A DNA stretch of 34,731 bases from the NCBI GenBank assembly GCA_019721035.1, contig JAHEAA010000021.1:1-34731 (forward strand). The letters run 5' to 3'. Below are positions 21,545 to 34,731 of this stretch, one piece after another. This DNA is from Candidatus Sysuiplasma acidicola. GTDB lineage: Archaea; Thermoplasmatota; Thermoplasmata; Sysuiplasmatales; Sysuiplasmataceae. The notes beneath the pieces are model-generated. The model saw only the letters and a list, made by a program, of their open reading frames with translations. It was not told the DNA's origin and ran no database searches. The number at the start of each line of letters is the position of its first letter. Position 1 is the first letter of the stretch. Both the position numbers and the translations under genes were made by a program.

Positions 21545-22240
21545 ATGTCAGAATCTAGCACCCCTTCCTCAAAGAAAGGAAAGGGGATTTCTACTGGTGC
21601 CTTTGCAGCCACTGTGGTCATACTATTGATAGTTGCCGGAGCAGGATGGGCGCTTTATGCAGTTAGACCCTCTACTGCAGCGCCTTCTGCTTCTGTGAAG
21701 CAACAGGTCACTTCACTTGCTTATGAACACTGGCAGGCAATAGGTGTTGAGAACCTTTCGCAAACCATGTCACAATACACGTCCGGCTCTGTTCTCTACT
21801 GGTCGGTAAAGGGAAGTGTTCTTAATGGAACATATACGAATAAGAGCACAATTGAAAGTACTTGGTCAAAGTTTTTCTCGCACGACCCTGTCGACTACTA
21901 CTCAGTATATAACTTTAAGATCAGCATTAGTGGAAACGTTGCTTCTGTTACTGCAGATCTTTGGTACATAGTACTAATCAATCAGAGCGCAAAATTGCCG
22001 GTGTCGGGTCTCACTCCTATCAAGGGCAACAGCAGTGTGAACTCCACTGTCGCCACTCTTATTCTGCCTTACCTGCTGACGTATCACTATTCAAACGGAC
22101 TCTGGCACCTGACCAGCGACTGGTGGGGGCTCCCGAGTCCGCACCAGGGATTCGTTGTCAAAGGGATAGTTGAGCAGTTCGCTAATCTATCACCGCCTTC
22201 AAACAGCACGGGGAGTTCGCCTGTAGGTGGATACTATTGA
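21545..22240 (+). CDS. Membrane-anchored extracellular protein, NTF2-like fold suggested
   Basis: A 231-residue protein with a serine/lysine-rich N terminus, one membrane segment (about 19-40) and an outside domain of about 170 residues. The domain pattern (YEHWQAIGVENLSQTMSQYT, LNGTYTNKSTIESTWSKFF, NFKISISGNVASVTADLWYI) resembles NTF2/SnoaL-like alpha+beta domains, which are found in enzymes and in binding proteins. There are several possible N-glycosylation sites (NLS, NGT, NKS, NQS, NSS, NST). A serine/proline-rich C-terminal tail follows. The TATA-containing inverted repeat just upstream supports a leaderless start here. The function is unknown. Confidence 0.75.
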   Translation: MSESSTPSSKKGKGISTGAFAATVVILLIVAGAGWALYAVRPSTAAPSASVKQQVTSLAYEHWQAIGVENLSQTMSQYTSGSVLYWSVKGSVLNGTYTNKSTIESTWSKFFSHDPVDYYSVYNFKISISGNVASVTADLWYIVLINQSAKLPVSGLTPIKGNSSVNSTVATLILPYLLTYHYSNGLWHLTSDWWGLPSPHQGFVVKGIVEQFANLSPPSNSTGSSPVGGYY

Positions 22241-23890: not shown

Positions 23891-24403
23891 TTACTTGTCA
23901 TGTTTCTCTATTTGGCTGATTGCCCAGTGCACGAGATCCACGGTCAAATAAAGGGTAGAATACCTGTGAAGTCTGTCAATGCAGGCAATTGCTTCTCTCT
24001 TGCCTATGATATTCTCTCTGTATGCGCGTGTTACAATCGCCAGCGTGCCATGCGGTTCCAGTCCATAACTCCTAGCCACTTCCCTCGCTTCCAAATCATC
24101 GGTGAATACAAGACTGACACCTTCCTGTTTGGCAAGTGCTATCGCAGTGGATTCCCCGGCGCCCAGTCCGTACTCCTCCATTATCAGTTTGGACATATCT
24201 TTTGCCCGCCCTTTCAACCTTGAGACTTTGCAATTTGCCGGGAAGCGTGAGGCGTCTCCGAGTTCGCGGACAACATCCTCGCTCAACAATATGTCCTGGA
24301 AAACGCGGAACACCTTCAAAGAATCTATCTGGCCCAAATGCGTAAGCGGGCCGGTGTCTAAAACAGCATTCTTAATTCTTGCCACCGAGTCCCCACTCCA
24401 CAT
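23891..24403 (-). CDS. PIN-domain protein, probable toxin (VapC-like)
   Basis: A PIN-type ribonuclease of about 170 residues. The acidic metal-binding residues are D16 (AVLDTGPLTHL), E47 (VVREL), E84 (LGAGESTAIALA) and D102/D103 (VFTDDLEAREVA), in the expected order. The C-terminal part continues for about 55 residues beyond the last acidic motif. The ATG at 24403 overlaps the end of the ribbon-helix-helix gene by 32 bases; a GTG at 24385 would start at MARIKNAVLDTG and fits the usual PIN N terminus as well. Overlap, order and a shared operator upstream make it the toxin of a type II pair. The RNA target is unknown. Confidence 0.87.
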   Translation of the reverse strand: MWSGDSVARIKNAVLDTGPLTHLGQIDSLKVFRVFQDILLSEDVVRELGDASRFPANCKVSRLKGRAKDMSKLIMEEYGLGAGESTAIALAKQEGVSLVFTDDLEAREVARSYGLEPHGTLAIVTRAYRENIIGKREAIACIDRLHRYSTLYLTVDLVHWAISQIEKHDK

Positions 24404-24566
24404 CCTCCTTGATTGCGGCTTCTATGCGTTCAGATCGCACGCGTCTTATCGTCTCCCTTACAGCAGCTCTAATGAGCTCAGATCTGTTGGCATACCAGCC
24501 CTCCTTTATCAGTTCGTCCATTTCGCTGACTAGCCGGTGGGTTAACTTGGCAGGAATTGTGTCCAT
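24372..24566 (-). CDS. Ribbon-helix-helix antitoxin
   Basis: A 64-residue protein whose N-terminal strand (TIPAKLTHRLVSEMDEL) and two helices (GWYANRSELIRAAVRETI) form the ribbon-helix-helix DNA-binding fold. The acidic C terminus (EAAIKEDVEWGLGGKN) would bind the toxin. The ATG at 24566 stands 3 bases from a perfect 12-bp inverted repeat, the likely operator for autorepression. The gene precedes and overlaps the PIN gene, the normal antitoxin-first order. Pairing of this fold with a PIN toxin is well known in archaea. Confidence 0.87.
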   Translation of the reverse strand: MDTIPAKLTHRLVSEMDELIKEGWYANRSELIRAAVRETIRRVRSERIEAAIKEDVEWGLGGKN

Positions 24567-24725: not shown

Positions 24726-25477
24726 AATGGGTCCGCCCGGACTTATACCATATATAAGTATAAGACAAAGATAATACCCTATCATCCCTCATAAATGGTA
24801 GTTACAGATATAAGATGCGACGTCTGGATATAGCACGATGCTTCCTGTGATTTCTCAGACCTGTGAATGTGCTCCCGAATAAATGATGTGAAGTAAGAGC
24901 TGAACACTATAACATGGCGCAACCGCTCAGAATATCAACCGACAGCCATCAAGGTAGAAATGGAACGGTTGAGCGATTCGCATTCCGATATCGGTGGCTT
25001 CATTTCAAATGTTCGAAGGCTATGAAAGCCCAGCAGAGTGGACAACGGACTACCTTTTTCCCATCCTGAAGAGTTCAAACACGAATGCGGAGAGAGAAGC
25101 GGCAAAACTGAAGGACAGTTCGGTGTGAACAAATCACACACATTGCTCAACTCGAGACCGGTGAAACGGGGGAAGAGAGCGTTCGATCGCACGTGCCACT
25201 TCACATTCATCGCCAACCTGTTCGCCGCCGTCACATGGGCACAGCACTCCCTCAAGCAGCATCTCGGCTGCATGACTTACATCACAGCGTAAAACAGGCC
25301 TGCAGTGAGCATGCTGCAACCGTTCAGCAGCCATGAGGCACGATCGCAATCATATTCCGCAACGGACACACGTGAAATTTATTGCGCTTGCATCATAATC
25401 TTGAGGCAGGAGTGCCTTCAAGGCACTCAAAACAGTTCACAGCGGGGGAATGAGTCTATTCGCATATTGGAATAAAA
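24726..25477. repeat. Repeat copy A, about 750 bp
   Basis: This stretch is a near copy of 27795-28550 in the same orientation, with mostly single-base differences and a few small indels. It begins AATGGGTCCGCCCGGACTTA and ends near GGAATAAA. Near the left end is a hairpin (24742-24764, CTTATAC/GTATAAG). Near the right end is the palindrome GAGTGCCTT-C-AAGGCACTC (25410-25428). It contains a transposase remnant (25038-25292). The flanks outside the repeat are unrelated between copies. It is probably an insertion-sequence derivative with most of its transposase deleted. Confidence 0.8.
25038..25292 (+). pseudogene. Transposase C-terminal remnant in repeat A
   Basis: The translation contains ERSGKTEGQFGVNKSHTLL followed by KRAFDRTCHFTFIANLFAAV, which has the pattern of the last catalytic glutamate (E in the EGxFGxxK context) and following helix of a DDE transposase. 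Upstream catalytic domains are missing from this copy. Relative to copy B, a 2-base length difference just before HPEEFKHECG shifts the frame. It is therefore unlikely to be a working gene. The IS family cannot be fixed from this part. Confidence 0.5.
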
Positions 25478-25580: not shown

Positions 25581-27152
25581 TTGTCATTGGGATCTGGATC
25601 TATCAAGGGATCTATTTCAAGGGAGCCGAGGATGCTGGTGACCACAGCTGTTGTTCTCATTGTCATCATTGCTTCTGCAAGCGCTGCTGAAGTCGTCACG
25701 TATAACCGTAATGTTAGTCCGCGCAACAGTAACAAATTGTTTGTAAATGAAACTGGGCCATTCTTCCCTAGCGGTGCGAGCATACAGTTCAGGAATCCAA
25801 ATGGCATGAATGCATCGAAAACACTGGTCAGTGTCTACATGCATCCTGTGAATTCAGGCGGCGCGCCGCTAAATATCAACAACAGCAAACTTCTTGTCGT
25901 ACGCTCTTTTTCCAACTCATATGGATTGTTTACCTTTCCGTTCAATGGCTTAATCGATAGTGTTGCAATGGGCTGGCGAAGCAATCTTACCCAGATGGGA
26001 GGGAAGTCGTATGCCGACGCGTTCGAGACATCTTTCGCGGTCACTGCGGTTGAACAGCTTGCTAACAACACAACCTGGTCGGCCATAACCTATCTGCGGT
26101 TTTCACCGGGTTTGCTGCTGCGGTATCTCAACGACAGCGCGTTTCATCTTGCGTATGAAGTCACTTTCAACATTTTCATTGATAATGCAAAACAGCAGCC
26201 GTCAGCGTATCCACACAATACCATCGCTACGCCTGACTGTGTGGGTGGCAGATGCCTTCATTGCACGCCCGGGTATTACTGGAAGGCCCTGGGCTCGACT
26301 ATTACCCCAAATATCTGGGTACCGGTTGAGTGGGTGAACAATCTGACGACATATGCAGGTGGATCAATTGGTTACACCTTGGGCATAAGCGGGGAGGATA
26401 CCGTCTTTCAAGCTGGTGTTTACAATACTGTTAAGGGTGCATGGTCTGTAAACAGTTCACAGCCGACTAGCACGCCCGCTTATGGCAACATCGCATCGGA
26501 AGCATTCACAAATTACAAATCGGCGGTTATTTTCATAAACGCTTCAGTAACATATTCAGAGTATCAATACGTCTACGTCAATTATTATTGCCAGGTAACT
26601 TCCTATAACGACTATCAGGCTGACATATACGTCAATAATGTTGGGTTGAGCGGTGGCAATGTTATGATGATGGCGAGATTCTCGCCGCCTGGAGGAGATC
26701 TATCCTCGATACTTCCACAACAGATGCAGGGGTTTCCTAACGTGGTCTATACGTCTTTTGGCAAGCAACAAAACTTCAGCAGCACAATTACACCATTTAC
26801 AAGTGAGCAGTATTCATACTTCCGTCTTACATCTAGCACCTCCAGTTTGGCTAATTACGTATCTGGTTTTCTGCCTCTGGGTGGTGTGATGACATCATTC
26901 ATGAACTGGGCAAAGACGATAAGTTCGGATATCGTGGGTATTGCAATACCATACGTCAGTGACATACTGTCTGGAATTAATTTTGAAAAAACTGTCGTGG
27001 TTGGTGCTGACATCAGCCTTCAAAATGGGCAGAACTTCGATATATCAGTGGCGGGATACAGCTTTCAATCCATTCAGCAGTACGACCTTTCAGGATGGAA
27101 CAGCGGAACAGCCGGCATATTGTTGTCCTACTGGAATGTTACCGGGAGCTGA
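25581..27152 (+). CDS. Large membrane-anchored ectodomain protein, paralogue 1
   Basis: A 523-residue protein with an N-terminal membrane segment (about 18-38) and a long tyrosine-, serine- and asparagine-rich outside part with many possible N-glycosylation sites. It resembles the protein at 30023 throughout: LVSVYMHP versus LLAVYIQV, FETSF versus AETSF, IWVPVEWVNN (245-254) versus EIPIAWAND (222-230), and a C-terminal block beginning TVVVGADISLQNG (471) versus TVIFSGDILNNG, each 53 residues from the end. A cysteine cluster (C220, C225, C228 in CVGGRCLHC) is not matched. The start is TTG at 25581; an ATG at 25632 would lose part of the basic leader. The gene lies between the two repeat copies. 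No enzyme family is recognised. Confidence 0.78.
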   Translation: MSLGSGSIKGSISREPRMLVTTAVVLIVIIASASAAEVVTYNRNVSPRNSNKLFVNETGPFFPSGASIQFRNPNGMNASKTLVSVYMHPVNSGGAPLNINNSKLLVVRSFSNSYGLFTFPFNGLIDSVAMGWRSNLTQMGGKSYADAFETSFAVTAVEQLANNTTWSAITYLRFSPGLLLRYLNDSAFHLAYEVTFNIFIDNAKQQPSAYPHNTIATPDCVGGRCLHCTPGYYWKALGSTITPNIWVPVEWVNNLTTYAGGSIGYTLGISGEDTVFQAGVYNTVKGAWSVNSSQPTSTPAYGNIASEAFTNYKSAVIFINASVTYSEYQYVYVNYYCQVTSYNDYQADIYVNNVGLSGGNVMMMARFSPPGGDLSSILPQQMQGFPNVVYTSFGKQQNFSSTITPFTSEQYSYFRLTSSTSSLANYVSGFLPLGGVMTSFMNWAKTISSDIVGIAIPYVSDILSGINFEKTVVVGADISLQNGQNFDISVAGYSFQSIQQYDLSGWNSGTAGILLSYWNVTGS

Positions 27153-27339
27153 ACACTTTTTTGCAACTACAGATGCAGTGCAAAGTTTTCCACTGCAGGG
27201 TCATTTCAAGAGATCGGAAGTCATTGAACTTCTCTGCCATTGAATGTTATTGTTGCGACTGGTCTGTCCTCTAACTTGGATTTTCGCGCCTGAATGAGAT
27301 ATTACATTTCGCAGCATTTTTCACGCTATCTCGATCCTG

Positions 27340-27428
27340 ACCGTACGGTTATGAAGCTATGGTGGTTTCATGCTGTTCCACCGCTCTGCCGCCTCAAGCA
27401 GCAGCGGTGGAAGGGTATGGAAATACCC
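27340..27428. ncRNA. Candidate structured element, stacked hairpins
   Basis: Three inverted repeats follow closely: the palindrome ACCGTACGGT (27340-27349); TTCCACCGCT (27376-27385) with AGCGGTGGAA (27403-27412), 10 perfect pairs and a 17-base loop; and, with no gap, GGGTAT (27413-27418) with ATACCC (27423-27428) closing a GGAA tetraloop of the GNRA type. Two adjoining helices and a GNRA loop suggest folded RNA. The stretch is noncoding, between paralogue 1 and a gene remnant. Transcription is not shown. Confidence 0.35.
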
Positions 27429-27551
27429 CATCTGGGAAACAGGAAACTGAAAATTGAAATCTCCTGAAACATACAAAAAGATCAACGCTTTTATTACCTG
27501 TGAAAATCCAAGTTAGGACCTCTCTGCGGCACGTCTGTCTACACCCCATAA

Positions 27552-27749
27552 GACGTCTCATATGATGCAACGGGTTATTTGCTTCAACTCAATGGTGAAA
27601 AGATTATAGCAGGAACTGCAACTGCTGCCACTCTGCTTCCAGGCGACAGTTCTTGCTTCGAAAATGTGCATAACGGTCTCTCTACCATTCAAATTGGGCA
27701 TACTCTCTTGGACCCCCTTTCTGCCTCTTGTCACTGTGCCTCTTTATAG
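27552..27749 (+). pseudogene. Fragment of a coding frame, probably a surface protein
   Basis: An open stretch of 65 codons without a start codon reads plausibly as protein in its first 50 residues (DVSYDATGYLLQLNGEKIIA, then GTATAATLLPGDSSCFENVH), then deteriorates before a TAG. Text of this kind resembles extracellular beta-rich domains. It lies between paralogue 1 and repeat B. It is probably the remnant of another secreted-protein gene. No family was recognised. The rest of 27153-27794 shows only the hairpins described separately. Confidence 0.35.
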
Positions 27750-27794
27750 TGCGTGAAGGCATGGAAAAATCAAGAGCTTTAAACCGTAAGTCAG

Positions 27795-28550
27795 AATGGG
27801 TCTGCCCGGACTTATACCACAAATAGGTATAAGACAAAGGTAATATCCTATCATCCATTACAAATGGTAGTCAGAGATACATGATGCGACGTCTGGATAG
27901 AGCACGATGCTGCCTGCGTTTTCGCAGACCTGTGAATGTGCTTCCGAATAAATGATATGAAGTGAGAGCTGAACACTATAACATGACGCAACCTTTCAGA
28001 CTGTCACAACCGACAGCCATCAAGGTAGAAATGGAACGGATGAGCGATTCGCAGTCCGATATCGGTGATTTCATTTCAAGTATTCGAAGGCCATGAGAGC
28101 CAGGCAGAGTGGACGGCGGAGCTGCCTTTTCACCCATCCTGAAGAGTTCAAACACGAATGCGGAGAGAGAAGCGGCAAAACTGAGGGACAGTTCGGTGTG
28201 AGCAAGTCACACACATTGCTCGACTCGAGACCGGTGAAACGGGGGAAGAGGGCATTCGATCGCACGTGCCACTTCACATTCATCGCCAACCTGTTCGCCG
28301 CCGTCACAAGAGCACAGCACTCCCTCAAGCAGCATCTCGGCTGTCTGACTTACATCACAGCGTAAAACAGGCCTGCAGTGAGCATTCTGCAACCGTTCAG
28401 CAGCCGTGGGGCACGATCGCAACCACAATCCGCAACGGACACACGTGAAATTTATTGCATTTGCATCAAAATCCTAAGGCAGGAGTGCCTTCAAGGCACT
28501 CAAAAAAGTTCACAGCGAGGGCATGAATCTATTCACACATGGGAATAAAG
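27795..28550. repeat. Repeat copy B, about 750 bp
   Basis: This is the second copy of the element at 24726-25477, in direct orientation. The left hairpin is CTTATACC/GGTATAAG (27811-27833), one pair longer than in copy A. The right palindrome (28483-28501) is identical. A further hairpin CTGCG-TTTT-CGCAG is present near 27915-27930, and is imperfect in copy A. The copy ends about 20 bases before the ISH3-like element. The 2.3 kb between the two copies holds paralogue 1. Confidence 0.8.
28093..28365 (+). pseudogene. Transposase C-terminal remnant in repeat B
   Basis: This is the counterpart of the remnant in repeat A: HPEEFKHECGERSGKTEGQF to KQHLGCLTYITA with few substitutions. The upstream part of the frame (MRARQSGRRSCLF) differs from copy A because of the 2-base length change. 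Most substitutions between the copies in the common part keep the frame, which suggests that the part was under selection until recently or that the copies are young. Alone it lacks two of the three catalytic acids. Confidence 0.5.
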
Positions 28551-28576
28551 ATGGAAACAGACCGTTTTTTTTACCC

Positions 28577-29964
28577 CAGTAGTCCCGCATAAGGAAATAG
28601 TTGCACTGGCACATTTTTTGATGTGAGAGTGCATTCCAGTGTTTGGAGGCATTGGGATGCACTCTACGAATGAGATAAGCAACAGAAGGATTAAGGATTT
28701 TGTGCTCAAGCGATTTGAACGCCATTTCCAGCTGCCTGTCGGTAATTCCGATTATACGAAGGGCGCCTACATTGCTGTACTTGTCTGGACAGCCATGGTG
28801 CACAAGTTCGTCGACGGCGTTGCGGGCGTAATGAGGGAGAAGTGGCTGCTGGCCGTTCCCTCGGGTGACACGGTCAGGCGTGCGCTGAACAGGATGCCCG
28901 CGGGCGATGTGAAAAGGCAGATGCTGGAAATAAACGGCAATGTCATTTCGGCGGCAAATAGGATGCGCATGTTCACAATGCCGGTGACATGCGCAATTGA
29001 CTGCAACGACAGGGAGTATTATGGAAAGAGAGTTTCGAAGCTCGTTGTGGGCGGAAAGCACAAGAACGGTACATCCTGGTTCTACAGGATTGCAACATTC
29101 TGTGTCGTGGAAAAGGGAATGCGTTTCGAGATTGCAGCCACAGAGTACAACGTCTTTTCCAGCCTTCCGAAGGTTGTGAGGAGGCTGATTGATGATGCCT
29201 CACGCCATGTGCGCATAAGGCACCTGCTCATGGACAGGGCATTCTCGACGGTCGAGATAAGACATATGCTGACGGACATGGGCATAAGCTACGTTATGCC
29301 GATAGAAACGAACGACAGAATCGAGAGGGAGGTGAAGGCAACACGCGGTCTTCGTTTCAGGCACATTGAATGGGTGACAACATACAGGGGCATCACCGAC
29401 ACGACAACACTCATAATCATAGACAGCGGCGAAGTGGTGCAAAAAAGGAAAAGACATCAGGAGACAGTATACTGGCTCTACGTCACAAACATGTCAGTGA
29501 CGGACGAGAACATCGTCGACATATGCCGTTACTACGACGATCGCTGTGGTATAGAGACAGGCTACAGGGTTGATGACCATGAGTTCACTGGAATGACAAC
29601 ATCACACAGCGACGCCATCCGCCTCTTCTATCTCTTTCTCTCAGTCATTCTCAGGAACATATGGACGCTGCTGAAGACAATGCAGTCTGTGCGCGGCGAG
29701 CGAGAGACAGCCGCCTACGCATTCAAAGAAGAATTCAGGAAGGATATCATCTTCTCATCAATGAGATCATGATGCGCACTCGTTAGTTCGTGAAACGGTC
29801 CATAACCGCACAACAGCAGGCATGAATGTGGAAACATCGTTGCATGTCCCAACAGTTCAGCGGACATGCCGCCGCATCAGTCACCGCACCGCTGACTGAC
29901 AACGGATTTGCAGGCGCTTAAACAGATTCGTGTCGGCTGCTGTCCCATATATGCGGGACTACTG
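28577..29964 (+). mobile_element. Complete ISH3-like insertion sequence, 1388 bp
   Basis: The left end CAGTAGTCCCGCATA (28577-28591) is matched exactly by the inverted right end TATGCGGGACTACTG (29950-29964): 15 perfect terminal pairs. TACCC flanks both sides (28572-28576 and 29965-29969), a 5-bp target duplication. Length, repeats and duplication all fit the archaeal ISH3 family. The insertion lies after an eight-T run beyond repeat B and about 15 bases ahead of the TATA box of paralogue 2. With an intact transposase and clean ends it is probably a recent arrival. Confidence 0.9.
28657..29772 (+). CDS. ISH3-like DDE transposase
   Basis: A transposase of about 371 residues, the only gene of the element. 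Counted from this ATG, the probable catalytic residues are D115 (TCAIDCNDREYYG), D193 (LLMDRAFST) and E300 (RCGIETGYR). The Y-rich DREYYG block and the YDDRCGIETGYR block are typical of ISH3 and related IS4-superfamily enzymes. The long insert between the second D and the E is beta-rich, as usual for that group. A GTG at 28639 could add six residues. The frame is intact to the stop, and about 180 noncoding bases separate it from the right terminal repeat. Confidence 0.9.
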   Translation: MHSTNEISNRRIKDFVLKRFERHFQLPVGNSDYTKGAYIAVLVWTAMVHKFVDGVAGVMREKWLLAVPSGDTVRRALNRMPAGDVKRQMLEINGNVISAANRMRMFTMPVTCAIDCNDREYYGKRVSKLVVGGKHKNGTSWFYRIATFCVVEKGMRFEIAATEYNVFSSLPKVVRRLIDDASRHVRIRHLLMDRAFSTVEIRHMLTDMGISYVMPIETNDRIEREVKATRGLRFRHIEWVTTYRGITDTTTLIIIDSGEVVQKRKRHQETVYWLYVTNMSVTDENIVDICRYYDDRCGIETGYRVDDHEFTGMTTSHSDAIRLFYLFLSVILRNIWTLLKTMQSVRGERETAAYAFKEEFRKDIIFSSMRS

Positions 29965-29977
29965 TACCCCCCAATAT

Positions 29978-30016
29978 TCTTATATCGGCAGGAACGTTAA
30001 CTCAACCATGGAGTGA
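29978..30016 (+). promoter_or_regulatory. Promoter and ribosome-binding site of paralogue 2
   Basis: TTCTTATATC (about 29977-29986) is a TATA-like box just right of the IS insertion. GGAGTGA (30010-30016) lies 6 bases before the TTG at 30023 and 9 before the GTG at 30026. The IS therefore left the core promoter intact but replaced everything upstream of it. Confidence 0.5.
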
Positions 30017-30022
30017 CTTTTC

Positions 30023-31630
30023 TTGGTGAAACATTCCATAAAGCGTATAGGCGCAGTTGTAATCAGCGTTATCATAATTCTTGCTGTGCTTTTCGCGCAT
30101 CCTTGGATTGGTCACAATCTCAGCAATCGGGGAAAAAATACAACAGGTATACCAATCGGTTTTTCCGTCTCTCCGGATATTACTTCATCACAGCTCTTAG
30201 CTGTTTATATTCAGGTGTGGTCAGCCAATCCACCGATGCAGCGTTTTTCAACCGCTAAGAACATACCTCAGCTACTGGGAATCTGGGCTAATTCGACGGG
30301 CGTGGTATCTGGATACCTCCCATTCTATTTTCTCGATATCGCCTCAAATTGGTCGGGATTCTTCAGGTCTGCGGGTCAGCTGGGGGCTGAAACTTCTTTC
30401 ACTGCACAGTTAACCTATTATTTTTACTACAACAAGACGACCGACCAAGTGATCCTTTATTCCGATCAGTTGCCTTACAATCCCCTGCAGGTGAATCGCA
30501 GCTCTGTCTTTTCTATTAACTTGCATCCTTCATTAATTGGCAGACCACACATCTTTGTCAACAGTACTGCCACCACTGGAGTTTCATCCGCTTCTGCTTC
30601 AGCGCTCAGCAATGATCCGAGCCAGGGTCAGACAAGATGGGTATTGATGAAGAGGACAACATTTGGCACTGTGACCAGCCCTGTAGAGATTCCTATTGCA
30701 TGGGCAAATGACACAGGAGGGAATACGCAGATAATCACATCAGTAACAATTGGCGCCATAAATAACGAAGTAGGGTGGACTACAGGGCAGGGATATAACG
30801 AGAGCAGTAAGTACTCTTTCTATTTGTCAACAGGTAGTAGTTATACTTCCCCTTCGAATGTTTCAGTGAGTACCGAAACATTTGCTGTTACCTCGCCCAA
30901 TGCCAGTCAAAGAGAATCGGCAGGCTTCATCTATGCAAATGGCTCACTAGAGGCTGACATTTATCAAGAACAGGAATACGAATGCTTTGCCTCTGTCGGC
31001 GGGGAGGTTTGTATGTGGGTAAACCTTTCCATCTATGAAACGATACCACTTATAGACATAGTAAACACGCAGAGTTCTAATGGCAATACTCTTTTTCAAT
31101 TGGGATACGTGTACGATGGGTATGATGCGTACAGCCCTTATACGAGTCCACAGGCGATAAGTACATTGAACTGGCCGGCAAATCTCATAAAGAAGTTTTA
31201 TACCAACCTCAGTGCGGGCAGTGAAGTCCAGTGGTCAACTGTTTACTCTTCAATAACCGGCAGTGACAACAACCTTGGAGCGGATATCTTTGGCATTTTA
31301 TCAATTGGTCTTAGCTTTCTGGGGGTCATAACTGCAGCAGCAGTTGCGACAGGTTGGATTCCCGGTGATGGATGGGCCGCAATAGCAGCGGATGATGCCA
31401 ATACTCTTGGCATGTATGCGAGTGTAGCATCGCTTCTATCAAACGGAATAATGAACGCCAAGAGCAGCACAGTCATTTTTTCCGGGGACATCTTAAACAA
31501 CGGATATCCCACACCAACTCAAGGCAATACTATTGCACTTGTTATCTATTCACTTAACCTTGAGACATCGATTAGCGGTACTGACTATATCCTGCCTGTC
31601 TTTGACGGAGTCGGAGCTCCCAATCCATAG
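30023..31630 (+). CDS. Large membrane-anchored ectodomain protein, paralogue 2
   Basis: A 535-residue protein with a basic N terminus (MVKHSIKR), a membrane segment at about 9-27 and a long ectodomain full of serine, threonine, tyrosine and possible N-glycosylation sites. It is a divergent relative of the product at 25581, with shared blocks in the same order (listed there); the C-terminal block starts at residue 483. Near the end a hydrophobic segment (about 425-448, IFGILSIGLSFLGVITAAAV) could be a second membrane span or a hairpin; the other paralogue also has a hydrophobic region here (LPLGGVMTSFMNW). Two cysteines (ECFASVGGEVC) may form a disulfide. The start is TTG at 30023 or GTG at 30026. 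No function is recognised. Confidence 0.78.
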   Translation: MVKHSIKRIGAVVISVIIILAVLFAHPWIGHNLSNRGKNTTGIPIGFSVSPDITSSQLLAVYIQVWSANPPMQRFSTAKNIPQLLGIWANSTGVVSGYLPFYFLDIASNWSGFFRSAGQLGAETSFTAQLTYYFYYNKTTDQVILYSDQLPYNPLQVNRSSVFSINLHPSLIGRPHIFVNSTATTGVSSASASALSNDPSQGQTRWVLMKRTTFGTVTSPVEIPIAWANDTGGNTQIITSVTIGAINNEVGWTTGQGYNESSKYSFYLSTGSSYTSPSNVSVSTETFAVTSPNASQRESAGFIYANGSLEADIYQEQEYECFASVGGEVCMWVNLSIYETIPLIDIVNTQSSNGNTLFQLGYVYDGYDAYSPYTSPQAISTLNWPANLIKKFYTNLSAGSEVQWSTVYSSITGSDNNLGADIFGILSIGLSFLGVITAAAVATGWIPGDGWAAIAADDANTLGMYASVASLLSNGIMNAKSSTVIFSGDILNNGYPTPTQGNTIALVIYSLNLETSISGTDYILPVFDGVGAPNP

Positions 31631-32018: not shown

Positions 32019-32632
32019 TTGGTAGTTGCTGGATGCATAGTGTTTCTGTGGACTGCATTTTCGTTAACATCACAACCGGGATCGCTACAACTGAGGGGCG
32101 AGATCACACAAACTCATTCTTTAATCAGTTCTGGGATACCCGATACTCTGCCACCTGTTCTCAAAGATTCAACGCTTGTTGGATCCTTAAATTCATCGCA
32201 CACTATTTCGATAACTGTTGTCCTGAGCGAGAATATGGCAACTGCAGACGATTATCTAAGAAGTATCTCCAATACTCAATCTAGCCTTTATCACAGATTC
32301 CTGACACCCACTCAATTTTATGGAATGTTCGGGCCGAATAGCTTATCAATATCCCTTGTGAGGGAATGGCTATCAGCCGAAGGAATCACCAACATAAGTT
32401 CCAGCTTTTACGGCCAGCTGACATTTGTAGCCAATGTGTCAGAAATAGATGTTCTTTTCTGTGTGAGCCTGAACGTGTATTCATACTCGGGCGAGCTTTA
32501 TTAAGGGGTATCTCAAGTGAAAGTTTACCTATCCCGATATACAGGGATGGGTATGGCGCCGGAGCGGACATCGTGCACTCGGCAGCAACGATAGATAAAC
32601 TTTCAAGTGGTAAACCGCTTAGAGGGCTGTGA
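32019..32632 (+). pseudogene. Broken S53 peptidase (sedolisin) propeptide gene
   Basis: The first frame holds a membrane-type leader (LLVVAGCIVFLWTAFSLTS) and then text matching the pro-kumamolisin activation domain: SITVVLSENMATADDYLRSI, SSLYHRFLTPTQFYGMFGPN, VREWLSAEGITNISS, and FVANVSEIDVLF. It stops at 32502-32504 after YSYSGELY. The expected continuation (RGISSESLPIPIYRDGYGAG) is in another frame, ending at 32632, so there is a frameshift near 32500. The catalytic domain is absent. No good start codon is present; the basic stretch RKKAFSTL upstream is open but lacks ATG. The gene is dead, but shows that an acid-active secreted protease once lay here. Confidence 0.75.
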
Positions 32633-33641: not shown

Positions 33642-34731
33642 TCACCCGGGCAGTCGAATAACTGCCTTGTCGCGGTCAATTACTGAAACAAACTCCCAGC
33701 CTTCTTTCAGGTAGTTTTCGATATCCTTCTGCGAAACGACCTTCTGCCTGTTTCCATTGTTCACCAGGTTGCTCACAACCTTTTGTTTTATGAGCTCAGA
33801 GATTTTGCTTTCAGGAATTTGCTCTATTCCACCCAGTGCATCTATTTCTTCCTCAGTATATCCGATTGATTTCAGGATGACTGAATGTACGTGGGCGCCA
33901 GACTCGTGGTGGGAAGCAGATGTTTCCAGATATTCAGAGCACTGATCGTAACTGTTCCTCATATCCGTAATGACGTCTTCAGGCAACCTGTTCTTGTTTG
34001 TGGTGTACGTCGCCTCAATGTCCCCTACATGTCCCATGAAAAACATCCTGTAGGCATGCGAAATCCGCTGCCTGCTCTCTGCTATCATGAGCTGAGTATC
34101 AAAAAATGAGCGCCAGACATACGGTCTCTGTGTGAGTCCGACTGCCCTCATTGCCACCCTTATCTCATTGCCTATCTTCGTCGTCCTGAGGAACGGACTT
34201 CTGTCGACCACGCCTGGGAAACGGCTTTTGCCGAAATGGGCAGACGAAGTGGCTATTATTCCTGTATCCGGTGTGAGCCTTTCACCCGCTCTGGCTCTTT
34301 CATTCAGATATTCGGTAAGAACATCGCACCCCTCACGGCTCAAAAAGGCTACGTACTGCCTCCTGGATTTTGACAGTTCGGGTGGAACGACAATCATTGC
34401 CGGAACAGTCTGCGCTGATACTCTGTTGTCTTTCAGACTGAAATCCTTTACGTCCGATATCTTCAGGCCGCTGACGCCGAGATAATCGCATAGTGTCTCA
34501 ATTCGCAAGCCTGCATGTGAAATAAGTATGATGGCAGAACGGGTCCTCAGGGAGGTGGTCGGCGCGTACAGGACTCTTTTCAGCTCCTCCTGCGTTGGCA
34601 CCCTTTCGTCTCTCAGCGTAGGGCGTCTTTGAGTGTTCGCTATCTTTATGCGCCGCTGTATTTGTTTGCCCGAGAATTCCGCCCAACTCTTGATGGCTTT
34701 CAGATGATTGGCGATGTATCCCGGGGAATAT
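33642..34731 (-). CDS. Tyrosine recombinase (integrase), N terminus beyond window
   Basis: A site-specific recombinase of the phage-integrase superfamily. The frame is open to the window edge, and the part upstream of the GTG at 34601 encodes a core-binding segment (GYIANHLKAIKSWAEFSGKQ), so that GTG is not the true start. The catalytic domain contains the first arginine in SHAGLRIETL, the second motif with WRSFFDTQL, the GH pair in FFMGHVGDIEATY, and the probable nucleophile tyrosine in EATYTTNKNR. The roughly 100-residue tail after the tyrosine (SKISELIKQKVVSNLV and onwards) is of the type found in archaeal integrases. It may belong to an integrated element extending right. Intact so far as seen. 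Confidence 0.87.
   Translation of the reverse strand, partial: YSPGYIANHLKAIKSWAEFSGKQIQRRIKIANTQRRPTLRDERVPTQEELKRVLYAPTTSLRTRSAIILISHAGLRIETLCDYLGVSGLKISDVKDFSLKDNRVSAQTVPAMIVVPPELSKSRRQYVAFLSREGCDVLTEYLNERARAGERLTPDTGIIATSSAHFGKSRFPGVVDRSPFLRTTKIGNEIRVAMRAVGLTQRPYVWRSFFDTQLMIAESRQRISHAYRMFFMGHVGDIEATYTTNKNRLPEDVITDMRNSYDQCSEYLETSASHHESGAHVHSVILKSIGYTEEEIDALGGIEQIPESKISELIKQKVVSNLVNNGNRQKVVSQKDIENYLKEGWEFVSVIDRDKAVIRLPG

What the first reader, a model, noticed from the sequence alone, without database searches (positions are those of the whole stretch)
25581..31630. Two divergent paralogues of a large anchored ectodomain protein set among repeats and an IS
The proteins at 25581-27152 and 30023-31630 share conserved blocks in the same order over most of their length, including a C-terminal block exactly 53 residues from each end, yet differ strongly in between. 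Both have one N-terminal membrane anchor and many glycosylation sites. They are separated by a repeat copy, a surface-gene fragment and an ISH3-like element. This looks like a diversifying family of surface proteins, with no domain that I can name.
Basis: partly seen in the sequence, partly recalled or inferred. Interest (0 to 1): 0.57.

Follow-up and report, generated by a model that had tools for sequence, protein, structure and literature searches.

The report
Undescribed anchored archaeal surface protein family
Two very different-looking neighbouring genes of an archaeon belong to one old, so far unnamed family of membrane-anchored, probably sugar-coated surface proteins, which are candidates for the poorly known protein coat of acid-loving archaea of the class Thermoplasmata, many of which lack a regular wall.

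Summary
The two proteins (A, 25581-27152; B, 30023-31630) show no usable pairwise BLAST similarity. With relatives from other Thermoplasmata genomes, their profiles align over 381 columns (probability 98.9, E 1.9e-17, score 137.6). The best of 100 column-shuffled controls scores 24.6. The C-terminal block starts exactly 53 residues from both ends.

They are ancient paralogues, not a local duplication. Subfamily A is one fully supported clade, and genomes of two families carry both types. All 21 rows have an N-terminal anchor. All 17 B rows also have a hydrophobic segment near the C-terminus, which the 4 A rows lack. No invariant catalytic-type residue was found. Pfam, NCBIfam, PHROGs and PDB sequences give no family. 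IMG/VR, phage and plasmid searches give no relative.

The gene is patchy (27 of 400 class genomes) and stands alone. Repeats and IS are local: direct repeats flank gene A, an IS sits 58 bp before gene B, and the third repeat copy has no family gene. The only close orthologue pair is under purifying selection (dN/dS 0.11).

Most likely: anchored N-glycosylated coat proteins. Both structure predictions failed (pLDDT below 35).

The parts
25581..27152 (+). A-type protein P0001, 523 aa as first listed; the true start may lie downstream (ATG at codon 18). N-terminal hydrophobic anchor about residues 18-36; cysteines 220, 225, 228, 337; 13 sequons
   Evidence: relatives
30023..31630 (+). B-type protein P0002, 535 aa; N-terminal hydrophobic anchor about residues 9-27; second hydrophobic segment 422-440; cysteines 321 and 330; 14 sequons
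   Evidence: relatives
26991..27149 (+). C-terminal block of A (TVVVGADI and tail, last 53 residues)
31469..31627 (+). C-terminal block of B (TVIFSGDI and tail, last 53 residues)
24726..25476 (+). Repeat copy R1, directly upstream of gene A (end approximate)
27795..28545 (+). Repeat copy R2, same orientation, 91% identical to R1 over 629 bp; with R1 it brackets gene A (end approximate)
28577..29964 (+). Insertion sequence, 1388 bp, 15-bp perfect inverted ends, TACCC on both sides, DDE transposase 28639-29772; ends 58 bp before the B start; single copy in this assembly

Best explanation
Both genes encode members of one old family of extracytoplasmic proteins of Thermoplasmata. Shown here: homology of A and B over most of the ectodomain; a conserved N-terminal hydrophobic anchor; sequon enrichment; a pair of cysteine sites that occur together; in type B a hydrophobic segment before a C-terminal tail of about 50-60 residues; sporadic, stand-alone occurrence. 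Inferred: the uncleaved anchor holds the protein in the membrane, the chain is exported and N-glycosylated, and the mostly strand-rich ectodomain is clamped by a long-range disulphide (C228-C337 in A; replaced by a local pair, C321-C330, in B). In type B the hydrophobic hairpin tucks against or into the membrane near the C-terminus, so that the ectodomain is held at both ends, whereas A hangs from the N-terminal anchor only. Together they would be accessory glycoprotein components of the irregular exterior protein coat that some acidophilic Thermoplasmata carry instead of an ordered wall. The repeats and the IS are later, local insertions; recombination between the direct repeats R1 and R2 could delete gene A and so contribute to its patchy occurrence.
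For: Homology. Anchor in 21 of 21 rows and C-terminal hydrophobic segment in 17 of 17 B rows, 0 of 4 A rows. Sequons above the shuffled mean in 23 of 23 sequences. Cysteine site I in 11 of 21 rows, site II in 8 of 21, and all 8 with site II also have site I (not corrected for kinship). No D, E, H, K or R among the 20 columns that are at least 80% conserved, which speaks for a structural rather than catalytic role. No constant gene partner. An unordered exterior protein layer about 20 nm thick, of unknown composition, is described for two Thermoplasmatales (PMC12448462, passages read).
Against: Only 27 of 400 class genomes match, and in the home family one search found 3 of 8 genomes, so it cannot be the universal coat protein. 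No expression, localisation or glycan data exist here. Both structure predictions failed. Earlier work reports S-layers in acid-mine Thermoplasmatales (PMC3750248, passages read).
Confidence: 0.42

Rival explanations
1. Anchored recognition protein (adhesin, receptor or solute-binding protein) that acts at the surface but is not a coat component; A and B bind different partners.
For: Strong divergence of the ectodomain between relatives with a constant frame; patchy accessory occurrence; two or more copies in some genomes such as G269, G278 and G305.
Against: No domain of known binding families in Pfam or NCBIfam; no linked transport or signalling gene recurs.
Confidence: 0.27
2. Membrane-active protein: the hydrophobic segments of type B near the C-terminus insert into a membrane (fusion, pore formation or antagonism between cells), and A is a non-inserting partner or regulator.
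For: Hydrophobic segment with a Kyte-Doolittle mean of at least 1.6 in 17 of 17 B rows and 0 of 4 A rows, also in 6 of 9 more distant relatives; 3 of the 4 genomes with A also have B.
Against: The segment may simply be a second anchor or a buried helical hairpin; no immunity-like or delivery gene recurs nearby; no structure obtained.
Confidence: 0.1
3. Secreted or anchored enzyme (for example an acid-stable protease or glycosidase).
For: S53 protease genes or fragments lie near the B gene in this window (32019-32504) and in G003, and acidophiles export many hydrolases (recalled).
Against: No D, E, H, K or R among the 20 columns conserved in at least 80% of rows; no enzyme family matched; the S53 gene was not found in other relatives' neighbourhoods that were compared.
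Confidence: 0.08
4. Cargo of a virus or mobile element (for example a virion surface protein of an integrated element).
For: Direct repeats around gene A, an IS before gene B, an integrase-like ORF at the contig end (33642-34601, weak Pfam match), and an IS66 transposase beside the A gene of G224.
Against: Five scans of viral contigs and searches of the phage and plasmid records found no relative; 9 of 10 scanned neighbours elsewhere are not mobile-element genes.
Confidence: 0.06

Closest known systems
Exterior protein layer of Thermoplasmatales (Cuniculiplasma divulgatum, Oxyplasma meridianum; PMC12448462, passages read)
   Same: Unordered, probably glycoprotein layer on the outer membrane face of S-layer-less acidophiles of this class; membrane-anchored sequon-rich proteins would fit
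   Different: Its proteins are not identified; no link to this family has been shown, and the family is found in a minority of genomes
Archaeal S-layer glycoproteins
   Same: Exported, N-glycosylated, strand-rich surface proteins (recalled)
   Different: No S-layer family match, sporadic occurrence, anchor at the N-terminus rather than the C-terminus (recalled for haloarchaea)
Archaeal type IV pilins and archaellins
   Same: Hydrophobic N-terminal helix followed by a glycosylated strand-rich part (recalled)
   Different: Much longer; only a sub-threshold match of the anchor of L029 to UpsB (14.3 bits, cut-off 70); no pilus operon seen nearby
Fusexins (class II fusogens) and other membrane-inserting surface proteins
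   Same: Large strand-rich ectodomain with a hydrophobic membrane-contacting part (recalled)
   Different: Fusexins are anchored at the C-terminus (recalled); no Pfam match in 15 members; no structure available

Membership tests
One protein family containing both A and B | Significant profile-profile similarity over most of the length, above shuffled and unrelated controls | tested here: met
   Score 137.6 over 381 columns against at most 24.6 (100 column shuffles), 17.9 (reversed) and 27.4 (7 unrelated proteins)
One protein family containing both A and B | Same predicted fold | tested here: inconclusive
   Model of B has mean pLDDT 34.8; its C-terminal piece 34.5; A was not predicted
Exterior protein layer component | Membrane anchor, export and N-glycosylation sites | tested here: met
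   Anchor in 21 of 21 rows, sequons above shuffled mean in 23 of 23; actual export and glycosylation not shown
Exterior protein layer component | Abundant presence on the cell surface | not testable with these tools
   No proteomic or transcript data
S-layer protein | Match to a described S-layer family | tested here: not met
   No Pfam or NCBIfam family above cut-off
S-layer protein | Near-universal in the lineage as the major coat | tested here: not met
   27 of 400 class genomes
Type IV pilin / archaellin | Family match above cut-off | tested here: not met
   UpsB 14.3 bits against a cut-off of 70, anchor region only, 1 of 9 proteins
Viral or mobile-element protein | Relatives in viral, phage or plasmid collections | tested here: not met
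   IMG/VR; phages; plasmids
Hypervariable (diversifying) surface protein family | Positive selection between close orthologues | tested here: not met
   dN/dS 0.11 (NG86) in the only close pair; one pair only, whole-gene average
Hypervariable (diversifying) surface protein family | Members linked to the same repeat in the genome | tested here: not met
   Third copy at G000:C29 has no family gene nearby; the two window copies do flank gene A

The most novel reading that the evidence does not exclude
Type B is a cell-envelope protein with an internal hydrophobic hairpin that inserts into membranes (fusion or pore formation between archaea living at low pH), and type A is its ancient non-inserting paralogue that pairs with or restrains it; the two together would be a new archaeal membrane-remodelling or antagonism system.
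Probability: 0.06. Interest if true: 0.78.

Novelty: new variant of a known kind. Interest (0 to 1): 0.4.

Why it matters
It defines by sequence a family of anchored surface proteins that the searched libraries do not name, in archaea that live at very low pH, often without a regular wall. The proteins of the irregular exterior layer of Thermoplasmatales are unidentified (PMC12448462, passages read), so a family with a fixed architecture gives proteomics and cryo-tomography a concrete candidate. It also shows that two neighbouring genes with no pairwise similarity can be recognised as old paralogues once relatives are added.

Tried and rejected
Rejected: chance similarity (controls); local gene duplication with fast divergence (tree); a link of the family to the repeat (third copy at G000:C29:4213-4839 lies upstream of a radical SAM/SPASM gene, no family member nearby); viral origin; enzyme (no conserved catalytic-type residues). 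Not accepted: the surface-gene fragment between the genes.

Led nowhere: AlphaFold2 on B with a three-row alignment (pLDDT 34.8) and on its C-terminal 158 residues alone (34.5). PDB sequence search of the 15-row profile gave only 3 chance-level rows (best E 0.64). The one genome-contig scan found a single relative. Paper searches for a described family; none of the titles or abstract starts listed describes this family, but the library lacks most subscription papers. The early three-row profile with composition correction did not separate P0001 from shuffles, and thin profile-profile comparison was weak (probability 5.1); only the fuller sets were decisive. Rows dropped: partial ORFs L023 and L024 from the tree and the all-row alignment (21 of 23 used); six divergent or partial rows (L022, L023, L024, L025, L026, L028) from the 13-row B profile. 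In one search the matches of G227 and G326 cover the anchor region only and are doubtful, as is G380. The 400-genome draws overlap and are not independent.
Full report
WHAT WAS CHECKED. The window is the whole of contig C21 of a 1.97-Mb draft genome. I place it in the archaeal class Thermoplasmata from the title of the record of its same-genus relative G003 (MAG: Thermoplasmata archaeon isolate WH2.bin25; that contig has the same length, 54488, as G003:C228). The two ORFs exist as stated.

ARE THE TWO PROTEINS RELATED? BLASTP between them gives E 0.65. Each has relatives of its own: P0001 has a 97% identical orthologue in G003, and P0002 has 40% and 35% identical relatives in G003 and G006. 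A combined profile found matches in 20 of 400 genomes drawn from the class. These fall into two subfamilies: A (P0001, its G003 orthologue, one each in G224 and G398) and B (P0002 and the rest). Profile-profile comparison of A (4 rows) and B (13 rows) gives probability 98.9, E 1.9e-17, score 137.6 over 381 columns. The reversed alignment scores 17.9 and the best of 100 column-shuffled alignments 24.6. Seven unrelated secreted or surface-type proteins from the same loci score at most 27.4. Without any protein of G000, G003 or G006 the subfamilies still match (probability 96.7, E 4.1e-10). Direct BLASTP links appear between subfamilies elsewhere (L029 with L016, E 5.5e-7, and L018, E 9.5e-7), but one reversed control reached E 3.9e-4 (L029 against its own reverse), so only the stronger links count. 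Against this, the earliest thin profiles were not decisive. The C-terminal block lies exactly 53 residues from both ends. I take homology as established.

AGE. In a maximum-likelihood tree of 21 rows, A is one side of a branch with support 100/100 (the tool warns that the very long branch L028 meets the A branch, so the place of that join is unsure). A occurs in families f1 and f31, B in f1, f31, f17 and f26, and G000, G003 and G224 carry both. So the split is older than these lineages or was spread by transfer; it is not a recent duplication in this window.

ARCHITECTURE. All 21 rows have a strongly hydrophobic N-terminal segment. All 17 B rows have a second peak (Kyte-Doolittle 19-residue mean of at least 1.6) near the C-terminus, in about half of them followed by another; none of the 4 A rows reaches 1.6 there. 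Six of the nine further relatives recognised by the B profile show it too (12 ORFs examined). Two cysteine sites about 110-120 residues apart occur in 11 and 8 of 21 rows, and all 8 with the second have the first. P0002 and L012 instead carry a close pair nine residues apart. Sequons exceed the shuffled mean in 23 of 23 sequences. The 20 columns that are at least 80% conserved hold P, N, W, S, Y, G and F only. Structure prediction failed for full-length B (mean pLDDT 34.8) and for its last 158 residues (34.5); the rule of the tool limited the alignment to three rows. All statements on fold are therefore inferences.

DATABASES. No Pfam family reaches its cut-off in P0001 or P0002, and the 15 members of the B alignment give only two one-member matches at E 0.03-0.05. 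No NCBIfam family reaches its cut-off in 9 proteins. One nameless PHROG matches 1 of 15 members at E 0.0011. The PDB sequence search gave nothing better than E 0.64. No relative was found in five scans of IMG/VR or in the phage and plasmid records.

DISTRIBUTION AND NEIGHBOURS. With the broad B profile 27 of 400 class genomes match, two of them only in the anchor region. With the A profile 5 of 400 match, one only in the anchor region. In a draw of 292 genomes from the phylum 4 match, all within the class. Within its own family of 8 genomes, one search found full-length members in 3; the broader profile adds a distant one in G004. Neighbouring genes do not recur beside the family except in three genomes of one genus that share a locus next to a class I tRNA synthetase gene. 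Of 10 neighbours scanned, 9 are metabolic, transport, protease or information genes and one is an IS66 transposase beside the A gene of G224. The gene thus behaves as a stand-alone chromosomal accessory gene.

THE LOCAL DNA. Two direct copies of a repeat of about 750 bp (24726 to about 25476 and 27795 to about 28545, 91% identical over 629 bp) flank the A gene. In G003 the A gene also has this repeat upstream, and its contig ends about where the second copy would begin. A third copy in the genome (C29:4213-4839) lies upstream of a radical SAM/SPASM gene with no family member there, so the repeat does not mark the family. The IS runs from 28577 to 29964 with 15-bp perfect inverted ends and TACCC at both sides, and is single-copy in this assembly. 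It ends 58 bp before the B start. The A orthologue pair differs at 13 residues, with dN/dS 0.11 (NG86): purifying selection. No test of the A-B divergence itself was possible at this distance.

INTERPRETATION. The best reading is anchored, N-glycosylated coat proteins (confidence 0.42 for the function; about 0.97 for one family, my estimate). Two cultured Thermoplasmatales show a dense unordered exterior protein layer, about 20 nm thick, whose proteins are unknown, and the authors call for proteomics (PMC12448462, passages read). An older paper reports S-layers and S-layer genes in acid-mine Thermoplasmatales (PMC3750248, passages read), so 'no ordered wall' is not universal. The patchy occurrence means the family can be at most an accessory part of such a coat. 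Recognition protein, membrane-active protein, enzyme and mobile cargo remain as rivals with decreasing probability.

NOVELTY. The kind (anchored archaeal surface glycoprotein) is known; the family, its two-type structure and the B-type C-terminal hydrophobic segment are not named in the libraries searched, and none of the paper listings describes it as far as titles and abstract starts show.

Noticed in passing
window 24726-25476 and 27795-28545; G000:C29:4213-4839: Three-copy repeat with an 84-90 aa open frame that looks to me like the end of a decayed transposase; the 25038-25292 frame has no Pfam match.
   Followed up: partly
window 23891-24566 (-): Ribbon-helix-helix gene followed by a PIN-like gene (weak PIN match): a probable toxin-antitoxin pair; pieces of this stretch recur at G000:C5:46309-46574 and in G003.
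   Followed up: no
window 32019-32504 (+): A pro-kumamolisin activation domain (E 1.9e-19) that ends in a stop without the protease domain: an S53 protease remnant or a free-standing propeptide. G003 has a complete S53 protein two genes after its B-type gene.
   Followed up: partly
window 33642-34601 (-): Integrase-like ORF near the contig end; Phage_integrase match below the cut-off.
   Followed up: no
L005 (G006), L024/L030 (G290), L031 (G305:C18), L016 (G224:C28): Several relatives are interrupted by a stop or frame change, which may be decay, switching or assembly error.
   Followed up: no
window 21545-22240 (+): Small membrane protein with a sub-threshold match to PycTM (Pycsar effector; E 0.0034, below cut-off).
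   Followed up: no
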